Source: Stramenopiles sp. TOSAG23-6
Taxonomy: Eukaryota > Sar
Length of the DNA stretch: 64,000 nucleotides
Assembly (NCBI GenBank): GCA_900128565.1
Contig: LT635913.1
Coordinates: 1-64,000, forward strand
Direction: 5' to 3'
The position numbers were made by a program, and so were the translations under genes. This document shows, in pieces, positions 1 to 63,700 of this stretch (the first letter of the stretch is position 1; the number at the start of each line of letters is the position of its first letter). The notes under the pieces are model-generated. The model saw nothing but the letters and a program-made list of their open reading frames with translations, did no database searches and was not told where the DNA came from.

Positions 1-101
1 TGTATTTTGGAAAAATATTTCAAAAAAAAAAACTAAAATTTGTTAGGTACAAAATTCCGTACGAAAAATAAATTCGAAATTGAAAAAAAAATAAAACATA
101 C
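1..101 (-). mobile_element. Introner-type intron, 3' end just outside the window
   Basis: On the minus strand this starts GTATGTTTTA directly after the ALDH-like exon. It carries a near-palindromic core, the branch-point-like TACCTAAC, and an end reading CCAAAATACA at position 1. Related copies end one base later (ACAT), so the window edge falls almost exactly at the intron's 3' end. It closely matches the copy at 61074-61164. An open reading frame runs into it but is low-complexity and unlike the exon, so it is treated as non-coding. Confidence 0.75.
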
Positions 102-968
102 ATGTATCGATTTTATGCGACTTGCTACAGTACGAGAGCAAGTAAAGTACATTGGTGATTTACTAGATGCGACAGAAAACATTCGAGACTTTTCTGATAG
201 ATCAGCTGATATAAACGTGATCATCCCTTGATCTATATTATGTTTTTCAAATAGGGAAACGAGCATTTGGAACCAGCGGAACATGTGTTGTCCTGTATTT
301 TCACGGGATAAAACAACAACAGGTACACCTAACTCAACATTTCGTAGAACTTTCCGAAAGAGATCTAAGAAATTAGAAAAGTTTGAAACACATCCAATAT
401 AAGCAGCTGAGCGATTGATATTTATGGCTCCTGAAAATTCGTGCTCCAAAAGTTGGTCCCCCAAACGCTGTTCCACAATATTTGCTTGTGCAGATTCTTC
501 AATTTCAGTAAGCCCATCTTGTTTCAAATAGTCCATCGCCTGGTTTCCAACAAGAAATCCACCATGATTGGCAAATATTTCAGCTTCGACTGAGCGCACT
601 TCATTACGGTAATCTATTTTTGGTGGAACATATGTCAACATATGTTCAATCACTGCGTCGACTTCACCAGAAGTAGCCATTATACTATTACCATTTTCTC
701 GATTAAAGGCATCAACCGTATGGATTTTTTCACCACTCTTAAGTGAATCTCCTTTTAGAATAGTTACAATTGGATCTTCATACCATGTTTTGGCGTCAAA
801 AGAGTCTAGATATGATAGAGATTCAACACGTAAAGCTGTGGTATCATAATCAGGAATTCCTTCTCGTTTAAAGCATTTATCAAAATCGGTCGAAGCAAAG
901 TTATACGAGCGGGCATGAAAAGTTTGCCAGAACTGACGACGAACTAATGATTTATACCTAGCGAGCAT
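102..968 (-). CDS. Aldehyde dehydrogenase superfamily-like protein, 5' exon (partial)
   Basis: This is the first exon (289 codons) of a gene that continues beyond the left edge of the window. The N-terminus (MLARYKSLVRRQFWQTFHAR) is basic and aromatic, consistent with a mitochondrial presequence. From about residue 185 the sequence follows the ALDH pattern of a Rossmann-like cofactor region: NFSNFLDLFRKVL, then GVPVVVLSRENTGQHMFRW, then a helix and MITFISA. The catalytic Cys region is not in this exon. The exon ends in phase 0 at an introner. Assignment is by pattern only, and a diverged ALDH-like protein without activity is possible. The start at 968 is the first ATG of the frame and gives a sensible targeting signal. 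Confidence 0.55.
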
Positions 969-1434
969 TCTCTTCAGAGGACGACGAGATTTAATAATGT
1001 CGATTATATCTCGAAAGAACTTGTCGTCGTGTGTTTTCTTTTAATATTTAGCTTGCATTTGATTTAGAGCTTCTTTTCCTTCTTTTCTTTGATGGATTTT
1101 CGAATTCTGATCGATCGTAGGTTTTCGTGTTTTTTTCATAAGAATGAAGAAGAAGCGTTGGGCAACTTGAGTCGTTGAATATCCACTGAAAATGCTTCGA
1201 TGTAGCGATTTGTAATCGTCCAACATTTTGGTATTGGTGGAATTGTGGCAGTGTTTTGAAAAAGACAAAGCTACTTTGATATAAAAGATGAACGCATTTC
1301 GTAATTGGGAACAGAGAAGTCACGAAATTAAAGGAATCGACAAATGAAAATACCTTTCCTTAAAGGGATTTCACCAATATTTATTAGAATGAGACACAAT
1401 TACAAGAATTTTATTAATACATATAGCTTCTATT
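969..1434. other. Intergenic region with a doubtful small ORF
   Basis: This separates the starts of two unlike minus-strand genes. On the minus strand two overlapping frames stay open between 1041 and 1323. One gives a basic peptide of about 61 residues from an internal Met (MLDDYKSLHRSIFSG...) ending QMQAKY. It could be a small mitochondrial LYR-like protein, but no diagnostic motif is present and the competing frame is equally long. I do not call a gene here. Confidence 0.3.
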
Positions 1435-1845
1435 TCATAAAATCTTGCTCGTTTCAACTTTTTCAGCAGCATTTACCTCTTCTACAGCTTGCCTGTAAGC
1501 ACTATTCAGTTTCTTTAATTGCTTTCTCAAAGCCATATTCTTTTCGAGTCTAACTTGGGTTGCGTATCTAGTTTCTTCGATACGACGTTTATCATTCGAT
1601 TCTTTCTGATTCCTTCGTTTCTTCATTCGCCGGAATCTACGACCTTTAGTTGGTGGAGCTTTGGCAACTCCACCGTTTTTCTCAAATTCTGAAAATGGAA
1701 AACCCCACTTTGGTTTTTCCAAACTTTCAAGTAACATACCGCTGTTTGATATGCTGCGATTTTGGATACTACAGATACGCACTAGGGAAGATTTGGCTAG
1801 TAAGCTACTACTACGTATTCTAAGCATTGAGATTACTGATGCCAT
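1435..1845 (-). CDS. Small basic mitochondrial protein of unknown function
   Basis: It encodes 136 residues from the ATG at 1845. The frame continues 17 codons upstream without a better start. The N-terminus (MASVISMLRIRSSSLLAKSS) is rich in Arg, Ser and hydrophobic residues and acid-free, as expected of a mitochondrial targeting peptide. A short conserved-looking block, KPKWGFPFSEFEKNGG, follows. The C-terminal half is a highly charged helix (KGRRFRRMKKRRNQKE...). Size, charge and targeting would suit a mitochondrial ribosomal or assembly protein, but I do not recognise the family. Confidence 0.55.
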   Translation of the reverse strand: MASVISMLRIRSSSLLAKSSLVRICSIQNRSISNSGMLLESLEKPKWGFPFSEFEKNGGVAKAPPTKGRRFRRMKKRRNQKESNDKRRIEETRYATQVRLEKNMALRKQLKKLNSAYRQAVEEVNAAEKVETSKIL

Positions 1846-2148
1846 TGTGTTGTTTTTGTCAATTATACCAACTACGTACTTTATATGAACTTCCAATGTC
1901 TGTCAACACGCCACATGCCGCTGCTATCGATTTTTTCCGGCCGTTTTTCGTGTTTTTTTATGCTGATCCGCTGACTACTCAGACTCAGCGTCTTGTGGTA
2001 AAATACAAACTTATACCAAGATTTCCTTTAAAACCTGGTAAATGCACTACTGCTTCATACATCACATTATATCGGCATATTAAAAATCGAACAGTTTAGC
2101 AATATATTAACTTTCAATAACTGATTATTATAAGAAAAGGGTTCCATA

Positions 2149-2961
2149 ATGATAGGTACTGAGACTAAAAGTTCAGCTTCGTCAGGTTGCCCAGTTGGCC
2201 ACGGCGAGATTTCAACGGGCCGTAGAAGTGATGGGGACTGCGACGCTGCTAGACTCACAGATAAAAGCCTACCTGTCAATCGTGAGCTCCCTCCAAATCA
2301 GCGACCATCAATTGGTCAACGCATACCTCTTTCCACAAATCGTTTGAATTCTCGAATTCCAAAGTCAGAAGACAGTGGGAACACATGGGTCTATCCCTCA
2401 GAGCAACAGTTTTACAACGCTATGAAGAGAAAGGGATACACCCCAGACGAACGCGATATGAATACAATTATCGCTGTCCATAATACAGTTAATGAGCGCA
2501 CATGGCAACAAATTTTGCGATGGGAATCAATGCACTGTAAAACCTGTAGTACCCCGAAATTACTCAGTTTTAAGGGTCGTCCAAAAGACTTGAGTTTGAA
2601 GGCTCGCTGGAGAAACTTTATTGGATACAAGTTACCATTTGATAGACATGACTGGGTAATTGATAGATGTGGCACTCCTGTTAGATATATAATTGACTAT
2701 TATAATGGAAAAGCTGATAGTGGTTCACTCTCTACTGCTGAAAATTTTACTGCAAAAACTTCTATGTTTATAGATTCTCGACCTGCTCTCGATTCCATCG
2801 GCGCAGTTTGGGATCGCTTTAGAAAGCCTATATATGAGCAATTTGGACTGATTAATGCGAAACCTGACCTAGCGACTATGACAGGAATTACACAACGCAA
2901 AAATAGTCCTAATGGTAAATCAAATGTTAGTTCTGATTCTGCTGGACGTTGTCCATATTGA
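2149..2961 (+). CDS. HCCS: Cytochrome c heme lyase (holocytochrome c synthase)
   Basis: This is a 270-residue holocytochrome c synthase, the System III enzyme that joins heme to apocytochrome c in the mitochondrial intermembrane space. Seen in the sequence: a Cys-Pro-Val motif near the N-terminus (C14-P-V), WVYPSEQQFYNAMKRKG, NERTWQQILRWE, LLSFKGRPKDLSLKARWR, and LPFDRHDWVIDRCG followed by VRYIIDYYNG. All are family signatures in the expected order. The length is typical of the family. The start at 2149 puts the CPV motif at residue 14. The stop is TGA, one of the cases showing TGA acts as a normal terminator in this genome. The N-terminal 80 residues are low-complexity. Confidence 0.95.
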   Translation: MIGTETKSSASSGCPVGHGEISTGRRSDGDCDAARLTDKSLPVNRELPPNQRPSIGQRIPLSTNRLNSRIPKSEDSGNTWVYPSEQQFYNAMKRKGYTPDERDMNTIIAVHNTVNERTWQQILRWESMHCKTCSTPKLLSFKGRPKDLSLKARWRNFIGYKLPFDRHDWVIDRCGTPVRYIIDYYNGKADSGSLSTAENFTAKTSMFIDSRPALDSIGAVWDRFRKPIYEQFGLINAKPDLATMTGITQRKNSPNGKSNVSSDSAGRCPY

Positions 2962-3487
2962 TGAAACATATTATACCAACCAAGTGAATACCTCTAGAGT
3001 AGGGTTAGGGTTACAAAAGGTACTTTCGTCCCCGGAAGGGTAATTCCAAAAATGACTTTAGAAACAAATATTTATATTTCAGTTTTCAATATATACTATA
3101 AAATCATACAGTGAATATTAGCAAGGTGTGTGCCACTCAAGACTTTTGAAATTTTTACGTACAAAATTTAGTACGGATTTCGAATTTCCTGAGTGACCTC
3201 GGATTATTTCTATTTTCAAAAGAATACTGCAATAAAAATAATATAAATAATGTCATAGATCTAAAGGATTTTTTATATACACACATTCTCTCAAAAAACC
3301 ATTCCCGTGTAAGGTGGTTTAATACTCTGAAGAACATAAATCCAAATAATCTATATAATTTATACATGACAACTCATCATCTTCCATAATCCAATTTATA
3401 CAGGGAAGAAAAACATTTTTTATCTTCCATAATCCAATATATACAGGGAAGAAAAACATTTTACGAAGTCTACTTACGATATGTTAG
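2962..3487. other. Intergenic region with telomere-like motif, degenerate introner-like hairpin and a tandem duplication
   Basis: No gene is evident. Positions 3000-3013 read as two TTAGGG-type units. Around 3130-3205 lies a sequence with the GTACAAAATTTAGTACGG core of the introner family, bounded by CACTCA and TGAGTG inverted ends. It may be a worn, non-intronic relative. A 42-43 bp unit beginning ATCTTCCATAATCCAA occurs twice in tandem at 3379-3462. Confidence 0.6.
3379..3462. repeat. Tandem duplication, two copies of about 42 bp
   Basis: Two consecutive copies of a unit starting ATCTTCCATAATCCAA and ending GAAGAAAAACATTTT differ at about one internal position. They lie just past the stop of the minus-strand gene at 3488-5224, probably in its 3' UTR. 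Confidence 0.9.
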
Positions 3488-5224
3488 TTAACTCTCCGTT
3501 GACAACTTTACAACATGGCCGACAATAGGAGCAGAAGTAGTGCCATTTACGTGCACGGTGGGAACAACAGTGGGAACAACGTTTTTAATGTGCACCAATG
3601 ACTGTGGTGGACCACTATCATTCGCCACTAATTTATATTCATCCGGTGTCAGTTTACGACCTTGAGCAAGTTTCACAAGAACTGGTTTTACTGCTGAACG
3701 AGCATTTCCTTTATCTCTTCTTTGTTTACTTGGTGTTTTCTTTTTAGGGGTGGGCTTTACATCCTTCTGTAGTGACTTCTTAAATCTTCGTGCCATTAAG
3801 CACTCCTTTTCTTTTGAATAATCACGGAGACATCCTTGTCCTTTACATGATCTAGAGCGAGGTTTTGCATCTTCCTTTCCAATGCTGTCAGTATCGAACC
3901 ACCTTGCCAAGCAAGGCTTATAATCCCGAATAAGTATAAATTTGTCACTTTTAGAGGCATCTGACCAATCAATTACACCAGGTTCAACAGGTGGTAAAGA
4001 GTCTGTTATTGGGTTGAAGTTTTGGGATACTGTACTTTTAAGGTGCCAATCTAGTTGAAGATGACAAGGCATTGGCATAAATTTTGGAAATTGAATACAT
4101 TGTTTCACATTTCTGCTGGTATCGTCAGAATAAATACCACTACGAAGCAAATACTTCAAGAATGATGAACGTCCATCAACCTTCATCCATCGGTTGAAGC
4201 AAAATAAATCATCCGCAGGTAAATATGCATTAAGAGCTTTCACAGCAGGATGTAAAGGATTATTTGAATCCATTCCAACATCTGATTTTAATATGTTGGT
4301 ACGCATATAATACTGAACAGTTCCATTGCCTGATTTTGATTTTGACTTCGTAGCTTTCGCTGGAATGACCGCTTTTGAAGCAACAACTGACTGGACGACG
4401 GCTGTAGAAGCTACCGCAGTCTTAATAATGGCGGGAACCACAGCAGGAACTACAGCAGGAACCACAGCAGGGACAACTGGTTTAGTTAAAGCGGATTTAA
4501 CAACAACACTTGCTACAGCAGCCTTTGGTGAGCGTTTTTTCTTCTTTGAAGTTTTTGACCAGCGTACATTTTCAATGATCCAATCACGACCTTCTTCAGT
4601 TACAGCCATTTTGATTGGACGTTCACCCCATTCAGGGTTTCGTGGGGTAAGTACATAGCCCACTCGGTTTTTTGCAAAGTCTTTTGTCTTCTGACATGTT
4701 GCTCCAGGTCTAACTGCATCACCGGTAAAACTACCTTCAGTAAAGTCTTCCCTTGAGAAAGCAATACCCTCATCACGTACAGCTTCTGCCACCTTCTTGC
4801 AAAGCACCTTTTGTTTCTGAGCTTGGTGAAGAACAGTGGTTAGTTCTTGGTGTCCTTCAGTGACAACAGTCGTAACTTTAGTACCTCCATCACTACCCCG
4901 AAGCACAACAAGTAATCCATTTGCAGTTAAACCTACAACAGAAGTCGTACCTTTATAAAGTTCACTTGCAATTTGAGATTGAACAGAATTGTTCTCGATA
5001 GATCTTTGTAAAGTTGCAGCTTTTCGAGCTTTTTTTGCGTGGTCGTTAATAATCATTGAAGGTTCCTCGGAGCGTGGGCGTTTCATCGGAGAATGAGGTT
5101 TCGAATCTTCTGCTAATAACGCAACCGATTCCATAATATTTGGATTCATCATTTCCTTTGGCATAATATTAACACGTTGCAGCTCGTGGTGCATTATTGG
5201 TTGTACATTCATTCCGTTATTCAT
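3488..5224 (-). CDS. Unknown, probably nuclear, basic protein with VVPA repeats
   Basis: It encodes 578 residues and I do not recognise the family. A basic, NLS-like stretch lies near residue 48 (MKRPRSEEP) and another near 65 (KKARKAA). Residues of roughly 130-220 form a compact segment (VLCKKVAEAVRDEGIAF ... RPIKMAVTEEGRDWIIENV) that could be a winged-helix-like fold. Then come KKKKRSPKAA and a tandem VVPA repeat (residues of about 250-266), encoded by a 12-15 bp DNA repeat near 4430-4475. The C-terminal half contains Cys- and Trp-rich patches and a Lys-rich segment. A nuclear role is inferred from composition only. The start at 5224 is the first ATG and overlaps nothing. Confidence 0.7.
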   Translation of the reverse strand: MNNGMNVQPIMHHELQRVNIMPKEMMNPNIMESVALLAEDSKPHSPMKRPRSEEPSMIINDHAKKARKAATLQRSIENNSVQSQIASELYKGTTSVVGLTANGLLVVLRGSDGGTKVTTVVTEGHQELTTVLHQAQKQKVLCKKVAEAVRDEGIAFSREDFTEGSFTGDAVRPGATCQKTKDFAKNRVGYVLTPRNPEWGERPIKMAVTEEGRDWIIENVRWSKTSKKKKRSPKAAVASVVVKSALTKPVVPAVVPAVVPAVVPAIIKTAVASTAVVQSVVASKAVIPAKATKSKSKSGNGTVQYYMRTNILKSDVGMDSNNPLHPAVKALNAYLPADDLFCFNRWMKVDGRSSFLKYLLRSGIYSDDTSRNVKQCIQFPKFMPMPCHLQLDWHLKSTVSQNFNPITDSLPPVEPGVIDWSDASKSDKFILIRDYKPCLARWFDTDSIGKEDAKPRSRSCKGQGCLRDYSKEKECLMARRFKKSLQKDVKPTPKKKTPSKQRRDKGNARSAVKPVLVKLAQGRKLTPDEYKLVANDSGPPQSLVHIKNVVPTVVPTVHVNGTTSAPIVGHVVKLSTES

Positions 5225-5557
5225 TTTGAGGAGGAATTATTTTCCTTGTTAATCAACAATATTTTCCCAGTTTCCCGCGCACGACACGAATTCGAAAGAC
5301 AATTGCGCGCACGAAAAATATTTTTGAGCGACCAAAATGACACGTGCGTCTGTGCGATACCCGGTACCTACTAATCTGCTACTAAAAATTTAATGCCGCG
5401 TACTATCTTGTAGAAGTAGAGAACTAGCAGTAGTAGGACCTATAGCTGGTGTGAAAAAAAACGCCTAGCCTGTAAAGATAACGAGCCGAGTAATTAGAAT
5501 TATTGTTTATCGCTCAATTACATACATAGCCTTATCTTTTATTTGGTGCCTTAAGAA
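5225..5557. promoter_or_regulatory. Divergent promoter region with TACCCGGTACC motif
   Basis: This is the shared upstream region of a minus-strand gene (start 5224) and a plus-strand gene (start 5558). It contains GATACCCGGTACC with the core at 5358-5368. That motif recurs between other genes in this window (8389, 10639, 25344, 31514). Short CTACTA/TAGTAG runs are also present. No function is proven. Confidence 0.4.
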
Positions 5558-6772
5558 ATGATTGGGTTACACTCGAGAGAAGTAGCCTCCCAATTTTTCT
5601 TTGGACGAGCCCTTCAGCATTTGGCAAAACGTAGTATGTGTAGTACCAGTATAGTCACTACACCGTGGCAGGTTTTGCCTGCTACAAAGTCAGTAATGCA
5701 GCTGGATGATCAAAACGTCTTGCGCCAGAAATACGTTCCTAACCGGCATTTTTCTGTGTATAATGATCCATGGGAAAATAAATGTCGTCTCTCCCAAACA
5801 AATATTCTTTCCAGGTACAGATTTTTCACCACAAAGTCAAGTGATAATACTGAAAACGTAAAAAATAAAAGTGTAGCTGTTTCAGGGATGAAACAAATGT
5901 GGAATAAATATGGATGGACTGCTGTTGGTGTGTATGCGAGCATTTATGTAACCGGACTAGGCGGTATATATTCAGCTATTGAGTACGGTGGAGTCGATAC
6001 ACAGCCAATTTTGACAAATATTACATATTATTTGACAAAGTTTGGACTTGATAGTCATTTACCTATGGACAAGTTGGATCATCGATCCGGCTCATTTGCT
6101 GCGGCATGGTTAATATTGAAAACAACGGAACCTCTTCGTTTTATAGCGACAGCCGCGGTGACACCCGCTGTGGCTCGTTGGATTACTCCAAAAGTAAAAG
6201 AAAAGGCACAAAATGAGTTAGTGAAACATAGAGACCGAAAAGCGAAAAAGGTAATCTTGAAGCAAGCTGATGCTAAAGAGACTGCCGCATTTATAGATGC
6301 AGCCAACAAGGCTACAGAACATGCTTTGCTGTCACTTTCCCACAGAAAATCTTCAAATCGTTCCCGTGTGAAAAATAATATTTCCCGTTGGAGTGGATTT
6401 ACAGCTCACTTTGATTCAATAAAAGTCCACGGCCGTAGAATAAAACAAGTGATTAAATACAAAACCCCAATAATTGGTTATCGTGCAAAAAACCGTCGTT
6501 GGAGAGCATCTCACTTGTCTAACATTTTGTCTTCGAATAATGGTCTTGCAACTAGTGTCACTTTTAAAAATGCAAAGAAATTCGGTTTCAAAAATGATCC
6601 ATTCCCACATATTGGCCATAGTATAAAAGGTTCGATCAGTAGAAATAGATACCCTGTTCAACAAGAGCATAGACGTAATTTCATCAAACGAAGAAGTGAA
6701 CAAAAGCGGATAAATCGAGCTTTGAAGTCAAAGAAACTTTTAGACGAAATGAATGAAATGAATAATCACTAA
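5558..6772 (+). CDS. FAM210-like (DUF1279) mitochondrial membrane protein
   Basis: It encodes 404 residues. A long, acid-poor N-terminus suits mitochondrial import. Residues of about 110-210 match the DUF1279/FAM210 domain: MKQMWNKYGWTAVGVYASIY, then a hydrophobic glycine-rich segment, a second hydrophobic segment (LRFIATAAVTPAVARW) and a charged helix beginning VKEKAQNEL. In animals FAM210A and FAM210B are mitochondrial inner-membrane proteins linked to translation and metabolism. The last 180 residues are strongly basic (many Arg-Lys pairs) and are not part of the usual family, so this is a lineage-specific extension. The final coding bases are partly duplicated just after the stop. Confidence 0.8.
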   Translation: MIGLHSREVASQFFFGRALQHLAKRSMCSTSIVTTPWQVLPATKSVMQLDDQNVLRQKYVPNRHFSVYNDPWENKCRLSQTNILSRYRFFTTKSSDNTENVKNKSVAVSGMKQMWNKYGWTAVGVYASIYVTGLGGIYSAIEYGGVDTQPILTNITYYLTKFGLDSHLPMDKLDHRSGSFAAAWLILKTTEPLRFIATAAVTPAVARWITPKVKEKAQNELVKHRDRKAKKVILKQADAKETAAFIDAANKATEHALLSLSHRKSSNRSRVKNNISRWSGFTAHFDSIKVHGRRIKQVIKYKTPIIGYRAKNRRWRASHLSNILSSNNGLATSVTFKNAKKFGFKNDPFPHIGHSIKGSISRNRYPVQQEHRRNFIKRRSEQKRINRALKSKKLLDEMNEMNNH

Positions 6773-6810
6773 GAAAAAGAAACTTTTAGACGAAATGAAT
6801 AATCACTAAG
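6731..6810. repeat. Partial duplication of the FAM210-like gene's last codons
   Basis: The sequence AAGAAACTTTTAGACGAAATG and the following AATAATCACTAAG, the end of the coding region, are repeated immediately downstream (about 6777-6810) with one 9-base unit missing. The second copy carries its own in-frame-looking end but is untranslated. This appears to be a recent local duplication. Confidence 0.85.
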
Positions 6811-6981
6811 AAATATACAGTGAAATGTACAATGAAACAAACAATTATTTGAAATGGCTTAACATTGGTGAATGCATTGATATGAAAGTGTTACTTAAAA
6901 TCAGTGTAAGATAATTCAAGATAATTCAAGATAATTCAGCTCTAATCATTTGTTTTATTCAATAAAGAGAATATAATGTAA

Positions 6982-8247: not shown

Positions 8248-8584
8248 TGCAACACAGTCGATATTTAAGTGAGAACTGTAGAGTGGAAACTTTAGCTGAT
8301 ATTGGAAATAGCTACAGCATAGCTACAGTAAGTTGGACTAGTAGCATTTTGTAAAATAGTAGACTGACTCTGGCCAAAAAAAATGCATTACCCGGTAACT
8401 TGTTTAAGAAAAAAAAAAAATAATTATACGAAAGGACATTACCATTTGGTACTACCTACAGCTACGCAATCTTAGTAACTTGACCACTCATTTTTTCAAT
8501 TCCGAAATAGTTTTGAATTTTGCCAGTGATAGTGATTTTTTTGTGTTTTAGCATTACACTTCTCTACAACACATAAATATTCAA
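8248..8584. promoter_or_regulatory. Divergent promoter region with TACCCGGTA motif
   Basis: This lies between the divergent starts at 8247 and 8585. It holds TACCCGGTAA at 8389-8398, repeated AGCTACAG units near 8310-8335 and an A-rich run at 8410-8422. I see no RNA gene. Confidence 0.4.
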
Positions 8585-9913: not shown

Positions 9914-10020
9914 TAAAACTTATTTTTTTTGCAGTTTTGTATTTGTTTTTTGAATGAACCCAAACACTTGATGAGCTATTTTAACCTCTGGGAGACAGTA
10001 ATTTTTATAGTAATAGTTTT

Positions 10021-12464: not shown

Positions 12465-12537
12465 TTTCTTCATTAAAAAACAGTATTAAATATTTCAAGA
12501 TCTTTTATTTATATTACACAAAATTACGAATTTTTAT

Positions 12538-31710: not shown

Positions 31711-33620
31711 TTACCTACGTTTCTTTGTATCAGATGGTGGACATGGTGAATTACCACCATATGAATCTACAAGGCCAACAGGCATAAAATTTGGTAAAAG
31801 ACCAGTTGGTGTACCAGTACTGCTACCTCTGCGTCTACTAGGAGTTAGACGAGGAGAACTGATTTGAGGTAAATCTTTGTATTCTGGAATAGTTTTTGAT
31901 GCGTCTGCTTGAAAAATTTTCTCAAGTTTTTTCAGATCAAAAGAAATATCTTTTAATACAATACCATCACTGCAAACGCCACACGCAGTAAGTGGATTCC
32001 AAATTTCATTACTTTTACGATCACCATCCCCACGCATTTGACGTCTTCTTTCAAGTTGTGCTTTTTTTAGTTGAATTTTATACTCGGCAGTGATTAATTT
32101 CCACACTTTATAGGTTGCATCACTTACACCAGTTCCAAGATATGATGCCATTCGTAATTGCATATTATTTGCATATATCAAAGAATTCTCTTTTTCTTTT
32201 TTCGTAGGATACTTTATTATGAAAAAATATTTTTTTTTGTAAAATTTGTTAGGTACGGAATTTTCTATGAAAAAAAAAAATAATAATAATAAAAGCATAC
32301 ATGAACCGGAAGGATTTTCACTTCCATTCTTTGGACAAATTGACAACATGATCGCCATATTAGATCCAGAAGTTCACAACCACCAACCTCTCTACCAGTA
32401 TAACAAGGATTGAAATTACTGTATGGCATTTTGAAAGCTATTAATTGGACAGGTTCCCCCGCAGCAAACGCTCCTCCATTAAATCGAAACAAAGCTGCTT
32501 GGTTGTCACAGGTACCTTCGGGGAATATCATTAATTGTGGAGCATCATCCGATTTGTCTGTTGCACGAGCTTTTATATCTTGTAATGTTTTTGATTTCGA
32601 TTTTGGATCCCATCTATCTACAAGTAGTGCGTCTAAGACCCTACAAATTCCACTAAATAAAGGAAGACGGGTATTTTCTATTGCCGAAACGAAAGATGGA
32701 AAGGATAACGCTGACACCACAAGTATTTCTACTGCTCCGATATGGTTGGGTATAAGCAGTTTGCACTTTTTTGGATCGCAAAATTTTCCTTCAATCACAA
32801 CACGATGGTAACCTAAAAAACTGAGTGCTGCAAAGACAATCATCCGAACGGGACCAAAAAGCCAAAAGTTTCTCCAACGTTTACTTGGAAAAATCGCTGC
32901 CACATTCATGAGACATACACCAATAGTAATAGCAAAAGCAAACATGACAAAGCGAAATAGAGCAAAACCAGTTACTGTAAATATTATTGTTTTGTATAAT
33001 TCATATCCTTTCAGGGGTGTAGTATATTCAGTAGCTATTGCTTTGGAAACTCGTGGAATTTTATCCAGTGGTGTCGGTTTCTGTGGCCAGTTCCAGCCAC
33101 TTCTTGGCAACCCTAACATGTATCGCAAATTTTCCACCATAAACAGAAACACATGTGTCATTAAAAGTAGTTCTATATATATTAGAAGATATGATCGCCA
33201 ACCTACACCTTGAGGAAAATATTTAGACTCTACTATACCTAATTTCATTGTATGAAAGCCTGTAATTAACTTCGTTGAGGGAAAGCCTGTTACAGCATTC
33301 GCAGCATACTCTCCAAATGCATGCCAAGCTGCCCAAGTGCTCAATGTCATACCCTCAAATTCTTCCAGAGATATTTGGCCATCTTTATCTTTATCAAGTG
33401 AGTCAAAGAGACCTCGAATAGCTGACTCAACTTTACCTTCAACAGATTCAAACACTCTTTCTTTCAACATTTCTGCATCTTCCAGCATATTTATAGCTGC
33501 ATTATTGAAATCCTCCAACTCCAATGAATCCAATGAGTCTGAGCCATCCCATATCGGAAGATACCTGACTAAATTTAGAAGATAAACCAATGCAAGAGCA
33601 AAAACGAGGCGCTCGATCAT
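31711..33620 (-). CDS. LPCAT-like lysophospholipid acyltransferase with EF-hand (two exons)
   Basis: Exons are 32301-33620 and 31711-32211. The protein is 606 residues from the ATG at 33620. An ATG at 33728 adds 36 residues encoded by a GA-rich repeat and seems less likely. An EF-hand (DSLDKDKDGQISLEEFEGM) lies near residue 75. Two or more hydrophobic segments lie around 160-260. The PlsC domain has NHIGAVEIL (the HX4D motif, here HX4E), LFSGICRVLDALLVDR, LMIFPEGTCDNQ (EGT) and VQLIAFKMPY. The splice restores KILPVH-YPTKKEKENSLIYANN, matching the 'LPVYxPSxEEKxDPxLYANN' region of LPCAT and LPEAT enzymes that reacylate lysophospholipids in the ER. The intron is a member of the introner family. 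Confidence 0.9.
32212..32300 (-). mobile_element. Introner-type intron of the acyltransferase gene, GT...AG
   Basis: It is 89 bp long, in sense orientation. It starts GTATGCTTTT, has GTACCTAACAAA and ends CATAATAAAG. Removal restores the LPVH-YPTKKEKEN junction in frame (phase 0). Its last ten bases align with CACAATACAT of other copies, so AG here occupies the position of AT there. Confidence 0.85.
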
Positions 33621-52911: not shown

Positions 52912-53025
52912 GATTTTTAAGTGTTTATGTTCAATATTGAAAAATTAAAAAAAAAATTCATAAATATTATTTTGAATCAACTACTATTTACTAACATTTA
53001 TATTTCCAGGTTAAAATTTACATTA

Positions 53026-55017: not shown

Positions 55018-55078
55018 AATGATGAATTTAAATATAGTAAAATTTTGAGACTAGAAACGAAAAATAATTTTTAAAAAT

Positions 55079-57145
55079 TTATAAATTAATAGTCGTCAAC
55101 TCTGTGCCGTCATCGTCCATATCACACTGCGGTTCATCCATATTTCCATGAAGTCTGACATGAACATCATCAGTGTATAATATTTCCGAGTTTGGCATTT
55201 TATCCGAACTCTCTAAGGAATCACTTGGTCGGCCTAAAGGTACTAAATATGGAATGAGAAGTATTGGAAGTAATCTTGTTAAACTGCGGGTCAAAACAAG
55301 CAACTCAATATTATGAAATTCAGGAGCACGAACACCTCCAAAGACTTCCAATAGCCCAACTCCAACATATCCTCCAATGACAGAACCAAAATTTGAAAGG
55401 CCCATTGTCATTGCAAAAAGTGTTGCCTCCATTTTTGGTGGGCATAATTTTGCTGCTAGAATAAAAACTGGCATTGTATTAAATCGACTTATTAAAGGGG
55501 ATATAACTTCTTCGCCTAGCATGAAAGCTTTATCTGATATTCCAAGACTTTTGTTCCAACGTTGAACCCAAATAAGATCCATGTATTGTGAAAAAAAAAT
55601 GTTTTAGTATAAAAAATCCATAGGTACGAAATTTCATACCAACAAGAAAAAACAATTAAATTCATTTTTCAAAACGTACATGAGATTGACAAATACAAGT
55701 GCCAGTTGAGTCATTGCAAAGATTTTTCTGTATGGCCATGAACTAAAATATCTATTGTATAACGCCGTCCCAATGACAAAAAAAATATTTCCTAGAACGC
55801 CAAACCAGGAGTGAATAATGTGAAAAAATATTTTTTTTGTCAAGAAAAATGTTAGGTACAAAATTTTTATGGTAAAAAATGAATGAAAATTCAATTTTGA
55901 AACCATACATAATTTAGGTGAAAAACAGGGACGTTCTCCATAGACCCCATTACAATTTTCTGGGGTTTCTTTTGACCAGTAGTAGATAACTTCTGAATAT
56001 GGTTGCATTGCTCCTTGTAAGAAGATATAAATTGTTACTTGAGCTAATACAGGATTGATTTTAGATTCATAGTAATGTATAACGTAGCAAACAACTACAG
56101 CAATGAGTATACTAAATATACATATTACTGAATTATCAGATACAATAGAAGCAAAACCACCCTTTTCTGAAGAACATATTTTGTATAGTTTGATATTTGT
56201 TAGGTACAGAATTTGGTATAAAATTTAGGTAAAACATTCATGATGAAAACATACCATTGTCAAAGATATAGCACAAACAAATAAAGCCATTTTGATCATC
56301 ACGCCTTGTTTACCATTATTAATTGCATCTTTTAAAGGTTGAATATTTGAACATTTTCTATACGGAGGTTTGTCACGCTCTTCGGGTAGCCATCTTCGCC
56401 AAGCAGGAACCAGTACGGCTAGTGCTGGTATAACACATAAACCGAGAAGGACACGGCTACCAAACCATTCATAAAGAATTCCAGAAGAACAACCAGCAAA
56501 AATTTGACCAATTCCTAAAGACCCCCAGCATAACGTCTGCAAATCAGCGGCATATTTTGGGCGTTCACGACATCTTTTAGCGACAGATGCATCGATCATT
56601 ACATCAGGGGATGCGATGGAGTAATTAAACATAATCAATAATATTGTAACTATTGCAATGCCCAACCCAGGAGAAAAGGCAAATGATAGAGTTGAAAATA
56701 CTCCTGAAAATCCAGCTATACCAATATATGGAGACAGGTGAAGTCCTGAAATTGGAAGTGTATCACTCAATACACCATACATAGATTTAAGTTGCCATGG
56801 AATGTTCCCCACTCCTGACACAACCTGCATTCTATCGGAAGATAGTCCAAGCCCTTTGTGCATTGTTGATTCCGTATCAGAGAGCAGATACCGCATTGCG
56901 AAGAATCCCCAACCTTCACCAATTCCTTGGTTCACACCATACACAGCAACGACAGAAAGCACAAAATATAGACCGAATGTTCTCGTTAACCGGGAAAAAT
57001 ATTTGGCCAGCGTACAAGGAAAAAACATTACATAGTCCACGAATTCTGGATTAACAGGAAGTGTATGAAAGTCACGTATACTTGAATCCATACTTTGGTC
57101 TAAATCAAGGCTATCATCTGTCAATGGATCAAACTTTTGGTCCAT
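55079..57145 (-). CDS. BT1/FBT-family major facilitator (folate-biopterin transporter-like), four exons
   Basis: Exons are 56255-57145, 55909-56173, 55680-55812 and 55079-55580. The predicted protein is 596 residues from MDQKFDPLTD at 57145; the frame is also open to an ATG at 57361. Family signatures are VNQGIGEGWGFFAMRYLL, WQLKSMYGVLSDTLPI (the 'P W x i K p l y G l l S D' motif), and PDVMIDASVAKRCRERPKYAAD. After splicing, YGERPCFSPKL, SWFGVLGNIFFVIGTALYNR and NLMDLIWVQRWNKSLGISDK also appear. About 12 membrane helices are expected. Relatives carry folate, biopterin or S-adenosylmethionine, and the substrate here is unknown. All three introns are introners, with 3' ends inferred as GT, TC and AT. 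Confidence 0.88.
55581..55679 (-). mobile_element. Introner-type intron 3 of the BT1 gene, GT...AT
   Basis: It is 99 bp, starting GTACGTTTTG and ending CACAATACAT. Joining CTC-AT to G-GAT gives NLM-DLIWVQRWN in frame, matching the family. Junctions can slide by three bases left or one right, never to AG. Confidence 0.85.
55813..55908 (-). mobile_element. Introner-type intron 2 of the BT1 gene, 3' end inferred as TC
   Basis: It is 96 bp, starting GTATGGTTTC. Aligning its end (CACATTATTC) to the family end (CACAATACAT) keeps the frame (KL-Y-SWFGVLG). Using the next downstream AG would create a TGA stop. ATTAT flanks both sides and may be a target-site duplication. Confidence 0.65.
56174..56254 (-). 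mobile_element. Introner-type intron 1 of the BT1 gene, 3' end inferred as GT
   Basis: It is 81 bp, starting GTATGTTTTC, with GTACCTAACAAAT. Aligning CAAAATATGT with the family end keeps the frame (LTM-SSEKGGF). The tempting CAG seven bases later would shift the frame to an early stop. Confidence 0.65.
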
Positions 57146-57419
57146 TGAGTGTGCTGTATTGGCAGAGTTGATATAATTATAACTTAGGCATTTGAATGAT
57201 ATTAACAAGTCATAAAAAATAAAATTGACAGCATGCGCAAAAAAGTAATTATTCGTGTTTTTTTTTTCTGTTAGGACTTCGACTTGACTACTTCGGTCAA
57301 AGGTATTATATATTACCCAGCTAGGGTTATAGTGTCTCTCGAATTCTTGCTCTAAACACACTTCTCTTCACACACTTCTATACCTGTCGAAAAAATATTT
57401 ATCTTAATCTTTTTATATA

Positions 57420-58226
57420 ATGGGCAAACGTGACGAAAATTCTCTCACTAGTACGAAAGACTCGTCAAGCATGGAAGATTCTAATGGTCGTGCATTGAAG
57501 AAACAAAAGATGAGCAAAAGCGATGCGCCGCCCATCAAGGTAAAGGTCGATGCTCCTACGGCTTCACCTGGAATAGTGTCTTCGACGGTAAATACGGCAA
57601 CCCCCCCAATAACGCCCTCTAAAGTTACAGATGAGAACAATGAAGACAAAAACAAAGTAAATACAAATATAGATTCAACCAAACCTTCAACTGTATTATC
57701 CGAATCACAGTGTAAACTTGCGCAGTTCCAGGGTTGGTGGAAACTCGACGTTCAAGCGTCCGAAACTATGAAACCATACCTGGAAACGCTTGGTTTGAGC
57801 GCTACGGCTGTCAAAGCCGCATTAAAAACAGAAACAGAATTCCCATCATTTATTCAATTTAAAGTAACGCCGAAAGAAGTTACTATCAAGCGGAAGTCCA
57901 GACTAAGTAGGCCATCGGATGAAAAAGTAGGTATAAATTATAAGTTGGGTATGACAACCTCTTCAGAAACAAAATACGGACAAGTGATTTCAAATGCTAC
58001 AATTCTTAAAGGTGGTATTCTAAATGTATCTGAAACTAGAAAAGTAAATGGCGAAAAAATTAAATTAAGTAGTCAACGAAAGCTTTTGGAGACAAAAGGA
58101 AATACTTTTAACGTAATTGAACAAATAATTACACTTCATCATATCGGTAATAAAGTGACTGTTACTACAAAGAGAATTTGGCGTAGGCAAAGGAGAGACT
58201 CATCGAATATATTTGTCGCGAGTTAA
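57420..58226 (+). CDS. Calycin (FABP/lipocalin)-like protein with disordered N-terminus
   Basis: It encodes 268 residues. The first 100 are Ser/Thr/Lys-rich and disordered, with a bipartite basic patch (RALKKQKMSK). From about 104 the pattern FQGWWKLDVQASETMKPYLE, then TLGLSATAVKAALKT, resembles the start of fatty-acid-binding proteins ('G x W k L ... e n f x x y L k a l G v'). It is followed by about eight short beta strands (VTPKEVTIKRKSR, YKLGMTTSSETKYG, GILNVSETRKV, FNVIEQIITLHH, VTVTTKRIWRR). The ligand is unknown. The fold call is from pattern only. Confidence 0.65.
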   Translation: MGKRDENSLTSTKDSSSMEDSNGRALKKQKMSKSDAPPIKVKVDAPTASPGIVSSTVNTATPPITPSKVTDENNEDKNKVNTNIDSTKPSTVLSESQCKLAQFQGWWKLDVQASETMKPYLETLGLSATAVKAALKTETEFPSFIQFKVTPKEVTIKRKSRLSRPSDEKVGINYKLGMTTSSETKYGQVISNATILKGGILNVSETRKVNGEKIKLSSQRKLLETKGNTFNVIEQIITLHHIGNKVTVTTKRIWRRQRRDSSNIFVAS

Positions 58227-58353
58227 AATGTATCAATAGTTAGTATGTGGAGAAATTCCTTAAATATTTATTTAGTACTTTTATATAATTTACTACTAAA
58301 ATATAAATGAAAAAACATTTTTTTTTTACTTTTCATAGTTTTCAAAAGTTGTG

Positions 58354-59802
58354 TCATTTCATATCCGTTAGTATTCTATTTATATAATTCATCATTTTCC
58401 GAAGACTTCTGCGACTGGATTTTTTTCGCGGTTCAAGGTTATCTTCCAACTCATTTTTGATGAATTTTAGTTTTTTATTTAACCAATCTGTAGACGCACC
58501 ACGCCATTCCGAATGAGAAGAACAGTATAACAATAAACCTGAGTTTTTGTTATTTTTATAATTTTTCATGGTAGAGACAGTAGACGTTGACGCAGCTGCA
58601 TTCAAACAACCATTACAAAGTAAAACTAATGACCGACATAACTCACAACGACCTGTGTGTCTATCATAAGTTTCATTGGGAAACGCACAATATTCACATT
58701 TTCCAATTATAGTGGGTTTCTTCTGGATCTGTTGATGCCTTTTTCTCTTTTTTGTGGTATCAGATGAAATATTATCTACACAATCGTTTGATACTGGACG
58801 TGCAATACCACGCCCATCAAATGTGAAATTACTGCCGCGGAAAAGACCATGTTGCCATATTTCTTTTTCTTCGACACTTTCATCTTTTTCGTTGCATTCA
58901 TGTTGACAATTTTCTATTTTTTTTTGATTTTTTGTTTTTTTCTCACAGATTTTTTTATCCGTACCATTACCTTTTACACGATTACATGCGAATGATTCTA
59001 AATATCGATGAATTCCACCCTTAAGCTGAAACACATCTTCTACGCCGTGTCTTTTCATAAGAGCAGAGGCTGTCTCACAACGGATGCCACCTGTACAATA
59101 CATTGCTACTCTTTTATTCTTCAAGTTTAATTTAGAAGCATTTTCATCTAACCATTGAGGAAATGCAGCAAAATTTCGCGTGTTTGGTAAAATTACTTCT
59201 GCGCCTTTTGCCTTTGCGGTGTCCCCAACAGAAAAGTTACCTATACGCCATTCGTATGGATTTCTACAATCTATTACACATAATGGTTTTTTACTTGAAT
59301 TTGTGCCAAAATTCGTATCTAATGGTTGATGAAGATTTGTTTCATTAGAAAATTTGAAATCTCCTGTATCTAATAGAGAATGCCACTCTTGAGGGGACAA
59401 ATGAATACCGGCAGTGTTACTTTTCAAATCAATAGGGGTTTGCATTCCGAGAGAGCATATTTCTTTGACAACTCGACATCGTAACTTTTTACCCTCAAAA
59501 TGCACTGAAGCATCAGGTCCATCACTTTCACTGAGTTTCCAATCAATATTAGTTGATTCAAATAAGGACATATCTTCTGTTTGTCTCATGTACTCATATA
59601 TATTCGCTGAAGTTCCACCAACTGTACCATTTATACCCCGACGACTAATCCGAATACGCCCAGCTAAAGATAGTTTTGCACACAAAGCTGTCTGAGCTGA
59701 AGCAACTGCGGCAGGATCATTCACTTCCGTGTATAAATAATATAAACAAACTAGTCCATTTTTAATAGATTCATTTGTAATGTTCGAACAAGAACCTGTC
59801 AT
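58354..59802 (-). CDS. TSTD2: TSTD2/TrhO-like rhodanese
   Basis: It encodes 482 residues. The N-terminal domain has GRIRISRRGINGTVGGTSAN, then IDWKLSE and RCRVVKEICSLGM, as in the UPF0176/TrhO family. The rhodanese domain has VIDCRNPYEWRIGNF, then the active loop MYCTGGIRCETASALMKRHG and VFQLKGGIHRYLE. Bacterial TrhO makes 5-hydroxyuridine in tRNA. Eukaryotic TSTD2 homologues share the extra Cys-rich C-terminus, seen here as CEYCAFPNETYDRHTGRCEL, then CRSLVLLCNGC. That zinc-binding tail and a basic linker (TKKRKRHQQIQKK) support TSTD2. Confidence 0.88.
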   Translation of the reverse strand: MTGSCSNITNESIKNGLVCLYYLYTEVNDPAAVASAQTALCAKLSLAGRIRISRRGINGTVGGTSANIYEYMRQTEDMSLFESTNIDWKLSESDGPDASVHFEGKKLRCRVVKEICSLGMQTPIDLKSNTAGIHLSPQEWHSLLDTGDFKFSNETNLHQPLDTNFGTNSSKKPLCVIDCRNPYEWRIGNFSVGDTAKAKGAEVILPNTRNFAAFPQWLDENASKLNLKNKRVAMYCTGGIRCETASALMKRHGVEDVFQLKGGIHRYLESFACNRVKGNGTDKKICEKKTKNQKKIENCQHECNEKDESVEEKEIWQHGLFRGSNFTFDGRGIARPVSNDCVDNISSDTTKKRKRHQQIQKKPTIIGKCEYCAFPNETYDRHTGRCELCRSLVLLCNGCLNAAASTSTVSTMKNYKNNKNSGLLLYCSSHSEWRGASTDWLNKKLKFIKNELEDNLEPRKKSSRRSLRKMMNYINRILTDMK

Positions 59803-60164
59803 TACTAAAACTAATACGTAATAATTTAATAAAGTCCAAAGCTGCTTGCGTGTGAAAAATCTTCTTGATTGACTTGTCGTGCTGAATTCTTCTTCAGATG
59901 GCCTTCAGATGATTTGATTTTGATTTATTTCGTGTGTGTCAATAAAACGGTTAAATAACGGCTGGACAGTAGTATATATTATTGGCTACAGGGTACCCCT
60001 ACACTACTGCTGTAGTACACGTAGGCACCGCATTACTTCTACTACTGATACAAGAACTATTACAAAACGCACATTAAATTTACAATATATCTCTAGCTAA
60101 AACGCCCATATAGCATTAGATTGAGATTATTTTGCAGAAACTTTACGTTTGATATTTTACATAA
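59803..60164. promoter_or_regulatory. Divergent intergenic region, no gene seen
   Basis: This lies between the TSTD2-like and IFT25 starts. It contains GGGTACCCCTACACTACTGC (about 59991) and CTACTACTGATAC-type repeats up to 60055. No RNA gene is seen. Confidence 0.35.
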
Positions 60165-60719
60165 ATGTCAAAGTTTGGGTCACACACGAAAAACGCATTT
60201 CCTTTAGATACACCGTCTGTATTCTATGTCGTTGGTGCTACATCACACGATCCTCTACATCCTCCGGAATATGCCATGACAATGATACCAAATAATATAG
60301 GTACAAAGTCATCAGTATCAAAACAGAATACTATGAAAAAACAATCTCAAACAAGTGGGAAATTCTGGTCAACTACTGGTGGCTTTCCACAGGAAATTAT
60401 CTTAGAGACTGAGGAGTTATGCAAAGTGCACTCATTGAAACTTGCCACAACAGGTGCTGCTTACTTAACTATACGGTTATATCCTGAATCTCATAATTGT
60501 AATGAGGTAGCGATGAGTGTTGTCACTCTTGAGAAATCAGAGCCCTTCAATGTCGGATTCCCTCGTCTACAACGTAAAATAGTTCACTTTTCAGACCAAC
60601 CACCTTGCCGTAGAATTAAAATAGTAATAGAAAAAGTATACAATCAATTTGCGACATTGAGTGATGTACACGTAAATAGTTCACCAATTGAAAGTATAGA
60701 AGAAACAGGAGTAAAATAA
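60165..60719 (+). CDS. IFT25: Intraflagellar transport protein IFT25 (HSPB11-like)
   Basis: It encodes 184 residues. The jelly-roll (discoidin-like) fold is suggested by HDPLHPPEYAM, SGKFWSTTGGFPQEIILETE, HSLKLATTGAAYLTIRLYPE and RRIKIVIEKVYNQFATLSDV. The 'F W x T T G x F P Q E' block is diagnostic of IFT25/HSPB11. IFT25 pairs with IFT27 in the IFT-B complex that moves cargo in cilia. Its presence implies that the organism builds a flagellum at some stage. An insert of about 25 residues (GTKSSVSKQNTMKKQSQTS) lies in the first loop. Confidence 0.83.
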   Translation: MSKFGSHTKNAFPLDTPSVFYVVGATSHDPLHPPEYAMTMIPNNIGTKSSVSKQNTMKKQSQTSGKFWSTTGGFPQEIILETEELCKVHSLKLATTGAAYLTIRLYPESHNCNEVAMSVVTLEKSEPFNVGFPRLQRKIVHFSDQPPCRRIKIVIEKVYNQFATLSDVHVNSSPIESIEETGVK

Positions 60720-60737
60720 TAAAAGGAACTATCTTTT

Positions 60738-63700
60738 TTAATCATATTCTACTTTTTCACTTGTAATAGCCCTAAATTCACAATAAAAACACTTATTCAG
60801 TAAAATAGCACAGTTTTTCCGATGCTTGAAGTGTTTCGTATTACTACCACACACGCTTGTTACTCCGTTGTACTTACCAAGTTGCTTCACTTGGGTATTT
60901 TCTGTTATTCGTCACTATATTTTGCCTCGCGGATTCCATGATGTTAAGCTGTTGTTTTTCCAGAGTTATCTTGCGAATCCGAGCAGCTGCTGTACTGCCA
61001 TCCCTATTTTGTTTCATTCCGCATATAGAACAACCTTTACTAGGTAAAATATGGGAAGGATTAATAAAGGTACATGTATTTTGGAAAAATATTTCAAAAA
61101 CAAAAAACTTGTTAGGTACAAAATTTCGTACGAAAAATAAATTCTAAAAAAAAATAAAACATACATGTGTTACATTTCCATGGTGCATTTTGTTTTTCTG
61201 TATTATCACTATGCCAAACACTTGTTGCGCTTTTCTTCTTCGGTATACTTTTCCATGATTTTATGGAGATGTTGGAAAGATTTGCATTATTTTCATCATT
61301 TAGATGACTTTGATATTGAAAATTCGAGGTTTGAAAATGTTCACTACTTCTGATATAATTTTCCATCATAGACGATTTTTCATTAGCTTGTATTGTAGAG
61401 GGATGACGACTATTATTAGAATTGAACGTATTCATGCCAGATGATTCGAAATTATTACTTGTTTTTTTTTGGATCGAATGACGCGGGAAACTGCACAATT
61501 CACATTTTGTTGCATCACGATTAAAATTCTCATATGTACACATTTTACAAACCCAATCGGAGGAGGTAGAAGAAAAGGAAACCATGGAGTTACATCTCCC
61601 ATCAATTATATCTAATTCTGAATCATCATCGCGTGTATACGCTGCTTGTACTTGCTGTAATTGTTCTTCTGCGGCCGCCGCTAATGCTTTCAATTTTCTT
61701 GTTTCATCGTCAGCTTTCTTTGCGGCTATGCGATTTTCATATTCAATGCGTTCTTGTTCAATACGACGTTCTTGTTCAATACGACGTTCTTGTTCAATAC
61801 GACGTTCTTCTTCAATGCGACGTTCTTCTTCAATACGACGTTCTTCTTCAATACGACGTTCNAGTTCAAGACGCTCTTGTTCAATACGTTGTTCAATACG
61901 TTGTTGTTCAAGACGTTTCTGTTCAATATTCTGAGATAACACAAAGTCCAAAGTCTCGTTTGCAACATCTGCACATTCGCGACAAGCTGCATTAGCACAA
62001 ATAACAGCAGTATAAGCAGCAGATGCCGCGTTGACACAAAAGGTCTCATTATCAAGAGAATTTGTATTATCAAACTCATTAGCAGCATTGATCATTTGCA
62101 GAGTTCCATTTTTAAATTGGTAAGATTTTGAAGGAGTAATCATCAAAGAATTATTGGCATCATTTACTGCAGCATATTGATCATCATGAAAAGTATTGAT
62201 TACTTCATTCTGTTTAAATATATTTGTATCATCTTTCAATTCTTGTTTCGATCCTTCCAGTGAAACTGTAGCTTTATCTTGTGGTTGTCTTGTAATAATA
62301 TTTGATTCAACGGCTGTTGATTTCCATACATTTTTACTATATGTAGCAGCCTTCGGCAAAGTAGTTGCTTTCTTTCTCCATGAATCTATTTCTGATCGTC
62401 CTACGGTTTGTTCTATAGGGTTTCTTGGAAAGTATGTATTGTGAAAAAATATTTCAAAAAAAAATGTTAGGTATAAAATTTCGTACCAAAAAAAAACTAG
62501 ATTTGAAATTCATGATGGAAATGTACATAGCGGTTTAGAAATTCTTGCAGTTGTACTAGAATGTTTCTCTCGTTGGCTAGGACGTTTGGAAGATATAGGT
62601 GGATAATTTACATTGTTGACTCCATTCGTGTATTTCGTGTATTTTTTTTTTGTTGTTGATGTTGTACTGATTGAAGTTGTTGACGATGAGGCAGAGTTTA
62701 TATCGTTCACTTTCGCTCGAGGGACCAAATTTGATTGAGATACAGTATTAGAAGTTGCTGATGTCACAGGTACATCTGGATTCCTTTGAAGAATTTCACA
62801 CACCATTTCAATAGCACGAATGCATGTATTGTGAAAAATATTTTTTTTTAGTTACAAAAATCGTTAGGTACAAAATTTGGTACGAAAACAAAAATCAGGT
62901 AGAAAAGGGATGATGGAAATGTACATGCATTAGATGATGGTCCTTTGACAACAAGTTCATTAAGACCTTTGTACATTGGTTTTGATGACTCTTGTACAGC
63001 TAGAGAAGTACCTGCATTGTAAAAAAAATAGAAATTAGAAATTCGTTAGGTACAAAATTTTCTAGTAAAAAAAATTAAATCTAAAATTCATAATTAAAGA
63101 GTACCAGTCTCTCGCATAATACGTTTGATGTTGCAACCTGAGGTACCTATTACAGTACCACGCTCTCTTGCAGTAAGTGAATGAAATGGTATGTAGGAAG
63201 CAAACCTTTGCAAAAATTCTGTGGCTTTTGTATGAGCGGCTTGAACTGCCGTGTCTGTACCCGTTATTGTAGCGATGAAAGTTTTCCGGTCAATTGAATA
63301 AGTTGCACCTGTTTCATCTTGAATTCGTTGTATTGTCGCACCTCCAGGACCAATGAATTTAAGCATTTTTTCAAGTGAGCCAAATTCAAACGTTTTCTGT
63401 GAAGATGACATTGGGCGGGGTTTCTTTTGAGATTGTGAGTTTCGTTTGACTGGAGCAACAACAGTTTTTAATGGTACCTTACGAGCTCGTGTGTATGAAG
63501 GAAGGACTCCACTCTTCCCCCAGGCACTCCGCACTATTCTAGGCTTAGGATGAGATTGATTTGACAAGCCACCATCATCTATATTTGATGTTGTGATGGA
63601 TTTGACTGAATCGATGTTAGATCTACAATAAGGACAACTAGCTGCCTGTTTCTTTGCTAGAAAGGTCTGACGCCAGCTAGATAAACACCCATCGCAGAAT

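What the first reader, a model, noticed from the sequence alone, without database searches (positions are those of the whole stretch)
1..63104. A family of short repeated introns (introners) with a shared core and variable, often non-AG 3' ends
Nine copies (1-101, 32212-32300, 55581-55679, 55813-55908, 56174-56254, 61074-61164, 62434-62526, 62824-62924, 63012-63104) share a GTAYRTTTT-like start, a near-palindromic core around TACGAAATTTTGTA, TACCTAAC and an end like CACAATACAT. Aligned at that end, the terminal dinucleotides read AT in most copies, AG in two, and by inference GT and TC in two more. Reading frames and domains support each junction. The 3' splice site therefore seems to be set by position or structure and not by AG. 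Non-canonical introners are established in Amoebophrya; whether this family is known I cannot tell.
Basis: partly seen in the sequence, partly recalled or inferred. Interest (0 to 1): 0.92.

Follow-up and report, generated by a model that had tools for sequence, protein, structure and literature searches.

The report
Jumping introns without AG endings
The genes of an uncultured marine microbe carry thousands of copies of a short mobile element that appears to be cut out of RNA as an intron at a fixed place whatever its last two letters, where nearly all known introns end in AG; RNA data are still needed to prove it.

Summary
The repeat family is real. All nine window copies fit one profile, and the core 14-mer occurs 1,018 times in the held 8-Mb genome against 0 for its reversed control. 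The host is most likely a MAST-3 marine stramenopile single-cell assembly.

I resolved both ends of 137 copies in 317 kb. Flanking coding sequence has the same strand in 128 of 133 copies (104 of 105 clear cases). Removing GTAYGTTTT...TTTTTYAMAATAC plus two nucleotides keeps the reading frame in 81 of 85 informative copies (78 of 82 not ending in AG). Alternative AG sites fall in frame at about chance. Homologues fit 12 of 13 aligned junctions, with ends AT, GT, AC and TC.

The last two nucleotides copy the last two of the upstream exon well above chance, so the element looks like a DNA transposon with 2-bp target duplications whose splicing restores the gene exactly.

A small test showed no ordinary GT-AG intron class.

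This is a new variant of introner. No RNA evidence was available, so splicing is inferred.

The parts
1..101 (-). Introner copy cut by the contig start; 3' end off the contig; donor GTATGT 96-101, branch-like TACCTAAC 42-49
32212..32300 (-). Introner in an EF-hand/acyltransferase gene; ends AAAG, i.e. AG at the +2 position
   Evidence: (ORF 14)
55581..55679 (-). Introner in BT1 transporter gene, ends AT; junction within the M of VNLMDLIWVQRWN, matches homologues
55813..55908 (-). Introner in BT1 gene, ends TC, no AG anywhere inside; junction within the Y of RPCFSPKLYSWF, matches homologues without a gap
56162..56254 (-).
61074..61164 (-). Introner in the KH/RING gene, ends AT
62434..62526 (-). 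Introner in the KH/RING gene, ends AT
62824..62924 (-). Introner in the second KH domain, ends AT
63012..63104 (-). Introner in the second KH domain, ends AG
55079..57145 (-). BT1-family transporter gene (596-aa reading frame after removal of three introners)
60901..63948 (-). KH + RING gene; removal of four introners leaves one 890-aa open frame (stretch tested; gene ends not determined)

Best explanation
This is a family of about 97-nt introners: non-autonomous, DNA-transposon-like elements that act as spliceosomal introns. On insertion the element duplicates two base pairs of target (AT preferred). It brings its own donor (GTAYGTTTT), T-rich stretches, an extended branch site (AAATTTYGTACCTAAC) and a 3' motif (TTTTTYAMAATAC). 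The splicing machinery cuts before the GT and two nucleotides after the AATAC motif, where the second target copy lies, so the last dinucleotide can be AT, GT, TT, AC, AA, GC, TC or AG. Removing element plus one target copy restores the gene exactly. Shown by computation: family, strand bias, frame, exact junctions against homologues, 2-nt duplication. Inferred: that removal is RNA splicing by the spliceosome, and that the AATAC motif, and not a fixed distance or a fold, marks the site.
For: 1,018 exact core matches, reversed control 0. Sense to coding flanks in 128 of 133, 104 of 105 clear cases; frame kept in 81 of 85 informative copies, 78 of 82 non-AG, binomial p 9e-34 against 1/3. Alternative AG sites near random in frame: first downstream AG 31 in frame, 24 and 25 out; any alternative AG 34, 36, 36; and 57 of the 82 have no AG between branch motif and end. 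Junctions without a gap at the site: urocanase 3, SHMT 2, PP1 1, ABCC 1, BT1 2 of 3; aspartic protease 3 (ends AT, GT, AC), the last with a gap two residues away shared by 3 of 7 homologues. Pfam domains span junctions in 6 of 8 further spliced proteins given, of 50. Duplication: 89 of 137 match at the 2-nt register (shuffled mean 64.1, maximum 75); among copies whose upstream pair is not AT 16 of 54 (shuffled mean 3.5, maximum 9). Donor and 3' motif highly conserved. Where upstream and downstream pairs differ, keeping the upstream pair gives 0 stops in 30; the other two cuts give 2 each.
Against: No transcript was seen: the listed hits of the three protein searches (lists capped) held no near-identical RNA-derived product. 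One of 13 homologue-checked junctions (56254) does not fit and looks like an ordinary AG end. Four of 85 frames disagree; at least one (L033) looks like a boundary miscall. The downstream pair is AT more often than the upstream pair (103 against 83 of 137), so AT itself may be favoured. Codon scores barely prefer the GT...NN cut over the shifted one (17 against 13 of 30). No autonomous partner was shown.
Confidence: 0.83

Rival explanations
1. Ordinary GT-AG introns: the spliceosome skips the repeat's end and uses an AG downstream (or upstream) of it.
For: Probably true for one copy, 56162-56254. The published gene model P0001 used this end there.
Against: Alternative AGs are in frame about as often as out of frame. 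In BT1 the published model loses 15 residues, including the conserved RPCFSP, and carries intron translation at the third junction; 12 of 13 junctions fit the +2 site.
Confidence: 0.05
2. DNA elimination: the elements are cut out of DNA like ciliate internal eliminated sequences, and the sequenced DNA still holds them.
For: Terminal repeats, short target duplication and exact restoration fit precise DNA excision.
Against: Elements lie sense to the gene in 104 of 105 clear cases and carry a donor, a CTAAC branch-like site and T-rich tracts, none of which DNA excision needs.
Confidence: 0.04
3. The cut lies two bases to the left: AT-AC-like introns (NN|GTAYG...AATAC), perhaps with a minor-type spliceosome or a self-splicing mechanism.
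For: Where the pairs match (89 of 137) GT...AT and AT...AC give the same RNA. Of 30 copies with unequal pairs, 13 have better codon scores with the shifted cut, 17 worse.
Against: In those 30 copies this cut makes 2 in-frame stops against 0. The donor consensus GTAYGT and branch CTAAC look U2-type and not like the U12 donor ATATCC (consensus sequences recalled).
Confidence: 0.08
4. Structure-defined splicing as proposed for Amoebophrya: a hairpin joins the ends and sets the cut.
For: The terminal repeats can pair (GTAT with ATAC) and the core is near-palindromic (seen).
Against: Consensus fold energy 0 on 127 copies (the alignment is gappy, 240 columns); core pairs form no more often than with shuffled partners in 134 copies; mean fold z of 40 sampled copies only -0.77.
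Confidence: 0.08

Closest known systems
Introners of Gozashti et al. 2022 (PMC9860276; passages seen)
   Same: Short repeated introns, some of DNA-transposon type with target duplications and terminal repeats, many copies, marine protists; several families take a splice site from the target duplication.
   Different: In the passages seen the sites are GT, GC or GA donors with AG acceptors. Here the duplicated target pair sits at the acceptor position but need not be AG. The duplication is 2 bp, against the 3-9 bp cited there.
Amoebophrya non-canonical introns / introner elements (PMC7789003; passages and section 11 seen)
   Same: Repeated non-GT-AG introns with inverted and direct repeats in a marine protist, supported by RNA-seq.
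   Different: Those vary at both ends, have 3-5-nt direct repeats, 8-20-nt inverted repeats and hairpins, and hundreds to thousands of families. Here the donor is mostly GT, one family was studied, the repeat is 2 nt and no hairpin is supported. The hosts are unrelated.
Fritillaria AG/AC and AG/AT introns (PMC13326754; abstract, passages and section 21 seen)
   Same: RNA-supported introns ending AT or AC; a YAY triplet often precedes the donor and almost always ends the intron, much like AT|GTAYG...YAT| here.
   Different: The donor is AG there and GT here; the host is a chordate; that paper links the ends to duplicated U2AF, untested here.
U12-type AT-AC introns (recalled)
   Same: A shift of the cut by two bases would give AT...AC.
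   Different: Donor GTAYGTTTT, branch about 40 nt from the end, donor consensus not ATATCC; the shifted cut makes stops in 2 of 30.

Membership tests
Introner (DNA-transposon type) | Many similar introns at different positions in unrelated genes | tested here: met
   137 resolved copies; 94 junctions in 50 spliced reading frames of the earlier, smaller set
Introner (DNA-transposon type) | Sense orientation and frame restored on removal | tested here: met
   128 of 133 sense; 81 of 85 in frame
Introner (DNA-transposon type) | Target-site duplication | tested here: met
   2-nt register, 16 of 54 non-AT sites against shuffled mean 3.5, maximum 9
Introner (DNA-transposon type) | Terminal inverted repeats | tested here: inconclusive
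   GTAYGTTTT against the reverse complement of CAAAATAC: short, imperfect; seen by eye in the consensus, no statistic made
Introner (DNA-transposon type) | AG acceptor, own or from target | tested here: not met
   AG at the site in 3 of 81 frame-consistent copies
Introner (DNA-transposon type) | Spliced from RNA | not testable with these tools
   no RNA of this species at hand; listed protein hits held no RNA-derived near-identical product
Amoebophrya-type introner element | Hairpin-forming inverted repeats of 8-20 nt and 3-5-nt direct repeats | tested here: not met
   no consensus fold; matches at 3-6 nt at about the shuffled level, 1, 0, 0 and 1 of 116
U12-type AT-AC intron | AT donor and AC acceptor at the +2 reading | tested here: not met
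   GT donor in 112 of 137, AT in 18; acceptor pair AC in 5 of 137

The most novel reading that the evidence does not exclude
In this lineage the spliceosome no longer needs AG: introners are nearly the only introns left, and the 3' cut is placed 2 nt past a transposon-end motif, so a transposon insertion at almost any dinucleotide is at once a working intron.
Probability: 0.4. Interest if true: 0.92.

Novelty: new variant of a known kind. Interest (0 to 1): 0.8.

Why it matters
AG is one of the most constant marks of an intron end, and most known introners keep it. A family that is spliced whatever its last two letters would show how transposons can invade genes without a cost at the insertion site, and would give a natural test of what the spliceosome really reads at the 3' end. 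It also has a practical side: the published model of BT1 is wrong at 2 of its 3 introners, so gene counts and claims of gene decay in MAST-3 assemblies may need another look.

Tried and rejected
Rejected: AG alternatives, hairpin-set splicing, shifted cut (small numbers), DNA-excision reading.

Led nowhere: snRNA searches U1, U6, U2, U5 found nothing, and their controls rang nowhere, or for U2 below the cut-off in two archaea, so they say nothing. DDE_Tnp_4: none. DDE_3: one intact 432-aa transposase at C298, but its flanks do not carry the element's two ends. Four structure-library searches gave no match at the cut-offs I set (1e-9, 1e-8, 1e-62, 1e-66). The viral-contig scan found none. Ordinary GT-AG introns bridging reading-frame pairs: 4 of 23 pairs against 4, 4, 6, 8 and 9 for five control motifs. 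First-base/last-base coupling: copies starting with A end in C in 3 of 18 against 4 of 112 for G (p = 0.055); by genome patterns 2 of 12 against 5 of 233, duplicate matches included: a hint only. A search for ISL2EU with 2-bp duplications returned no paper.

Dropped rows: 187 anchors became 137 copies after end scoring, removal of duplicates and of copies at locus ends; 4 more lay too near a locus end for frames, leaving 133, and 48 of those lacked clear coding signal on both sides, leaving 85. Loci L001, L002 and L006-L008 were left out as overlapping or duplicate, and L042 came later. Of the nine window copies, three are not in the 137: 1-101 (no end), 56174 and 63012 (not resolved by the end scoring). 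Most regions were picked because they hold core matches, so copy density there is not representative. Neighbouring copies within 120 nt were removed by the same rule before frames were scored, a slight circularity. In the register test a second peak (69 of 137, register -4) comes from the AT inside the conserved AATAC motif. My note says P0001 is mis-spliced at all three introners; the alignment shows two of three.
Full report
What was checked. The genome that holds the window (8.03 Mb, 408 contigs; the window is contig 371) has 527 + 491 exact copies of the core 14-mer and none of its reversed control. In the fetched sample 67 exact cores go with 137 end-resolved copies, 49 of which hold the exact core, so roughly 2,000-2,900 copies are expected in the held contigs, duplicate contigs included; this is an estimate from a sample chosen for core matches.

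Which organism. The spliced BT1 protein matches a EukProt entry named GSMAST32.ASY1.ANO1.2681.1 at 567 of 598 aligned positions, differing only at the junctions. I read the label as MAST-3; Seeleuthner et al. 2018 (PMC5778133, passages seen) describe two MAST-3 composite single-cell assemblies, 3A and 3F, and I cannot tell which this is. Inverted-duplicate contigs (for example C2) fit whole-genome amplification (inference).

The element. In 317 kb of fetched sequence 137 copies had both ends resolved: median intron length 97 nt, donor GTAYGTTTT (first two letters GT in 112, AT in 18, GC in 4, others 3), branch-like TACCTAAC exact in 112, branch A to end 40.4 nt (s.d. 5.9, range 20-61), 3' motif TTTTTYAMAATAC, then two nucleotides. 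Best-match identity between copies has median 0.82 and maximum 0.93, so the copies are not all recent.

Strand and frame. Codon-usage scoring of 120 nt on each side puts 128 of 133 copies sense to the gene, 104 of 105 when the difference is clear. Of 85 copies with clear frames on both sides, 81 keep frame when GT to AATAC+2 is removed; with stricter scores 29 of 29, with looser ones 100 of 108. A smaller first set gave 69 of 72. Ends of the 81: AT 65, TT 4, GT 3, AC 3, AG 3, AA 2, GC 1. If copies used some other site with random frame, two thirds would be out of frame, so 4 of 85 suggests that about 7% may do so (inference).

AG does not predict the site. Among the 82 non-AG copies, the first AG within 60 nt downstream falls in the three frame classes 31 (in frame), 25 and 24; the first AG inside, after the branch, 7 (in frame), 7 and 11, with none inside in 57; any alternative AG 34 (in frame), 36 and 36.

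Exact junctions. Urocanase aligns to 6uek without a gap at its three junctions, one inside GPFRWVCTS. SHMT aligns to 7e13 at both junctions, PP1 to 2o8a, and ABCC to 9li5 at the first junction; the second was cut from the output. The aspartic protease has ends AT and GT without a gap; the AC-ended junction has a one-column gap two residues away, shared with 3 of 7 homologues. BT1 against 15 other proteins (one of them the published model of the same gene): the AT and TC junctions fit, the third does not. That makes 12 of 13. Pfam domains span junctions in 6 of 8 further spliced proteins, including a KH domain crossed by two introners of the window (AG and AT; this KH stretch alone is weaker than the 1e-10 cut-off, the whole protein passes) and a DHHC domain crossed by a TT-ended one; in the other two proteins the best stretch does not reach the junction. 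The window's KH/RING gene becomes one 890-aa open frame when four introners are removed.

The exception. This copy probably became a normal GT-AG intron.

Transposon signs. The last two intron nucleotides equal the last two exon nucleotides in 89 of 137 (shuffled mean 64.1, maximum 75 of 2,000 shuffles). Where the upstream pair is not AT the match is 16 of 54 against a mean of 3.5 and maximum of 9. Longer matches, 3 to 6 nt, are at about the shuffled level in the first set of 116. In 30 frame-consistent copies with unequal pairs, keeping the upstream pair makes no stop, while the two shifted cuts make two each; codon scores favour it only 17 to 13. This leans to GT...NN. The downstream pair is AT more often (103 of 137) than the upstream pair (83), so AT may also be favoured.

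What it is not. No consensus structure or covariation was found. The strand bias argues against DNA-level excision. Ordinary GT-AG introns joining reading-frame pairs were no more common than control motifs (4 of 23 pairs against 4-9); small numbers.

Print. Searches of the held library: introner with Amoebophrya (5 papers), with target duplication terms (19, 3 papers), with MAST-3 (32, none), MAST and intron (33, 3 papers), single-amplified stramenopile (38, none), MAST-3 non-canonical intron (39, none), splice acceptor (74, best 15 of 419 listed) and a mixed set (80, best 15 of 538 listed). None of the listed titles or the passages that I read describes this family. The MAST genome papers PMC8163842 and PMC12614181 do not contain the word intron in the main text (passages seen). 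Gozashti et al. 2022 screened 520 annotated Tara assemblies, and I could not see its supplements, so this family may have been touched there through models with AG ends. Non-AG acceptors have RNA support in Fritillaria (section 21 seen) and Amoebophrya (passages). So the kind is known; this GT...NN form with a 2-bp target copy at the acceptor, in a stramenopile, appears new.

Noticed in passing
window 55581-63104 against 1-55000; L017 (C13:1-3400); L019 (C18:26400-28000): Introners are strongly clustered: seven in 7.5 kb of the window against one clear and one weak copy (plus the contig-end copy) in the first 55 kb; similar clusters on C13 and C18.
   Followed up: no
L010:7483-7676: Two introners sit back to back; the second begins at the terminal pair of the first, and removing both leaves an open frame with a TBC domain across the site.
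   Followed up: partly
L042 (C298:5500-8300): The only DDE_3 (IS630/Tc1-mariner type) match found in the held genome, 432-aa open frame; a stretch near L042:205-228 on the minus strand resembles the introner 3' end by eye, no matching other end seen.
   Followed up: partly
window 55079-57145 against P0001: The published EukProt model of the BT1 gene is wrong at two of its three introners: 15 residues lost at one, intron translated at another.
   Followed up: yes
literature, PMC5778133: MAST-3A dynein heavy chains were reported as undergoing advanced pseudogenization; unrecognised non-AG introners could mimic this if that assembly carries them.
   Followed up: no
contigs C8, C11, C12, C15, C23, window 1-101: Several contig ends fall inside an introner, so the repeat seems to break the assembly.
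   Followed up: no
window 61731-61928: 18-bp tandem repeat coding a Glu/Arg-rich stretch in the KH/RING gene.
   Followed up: no
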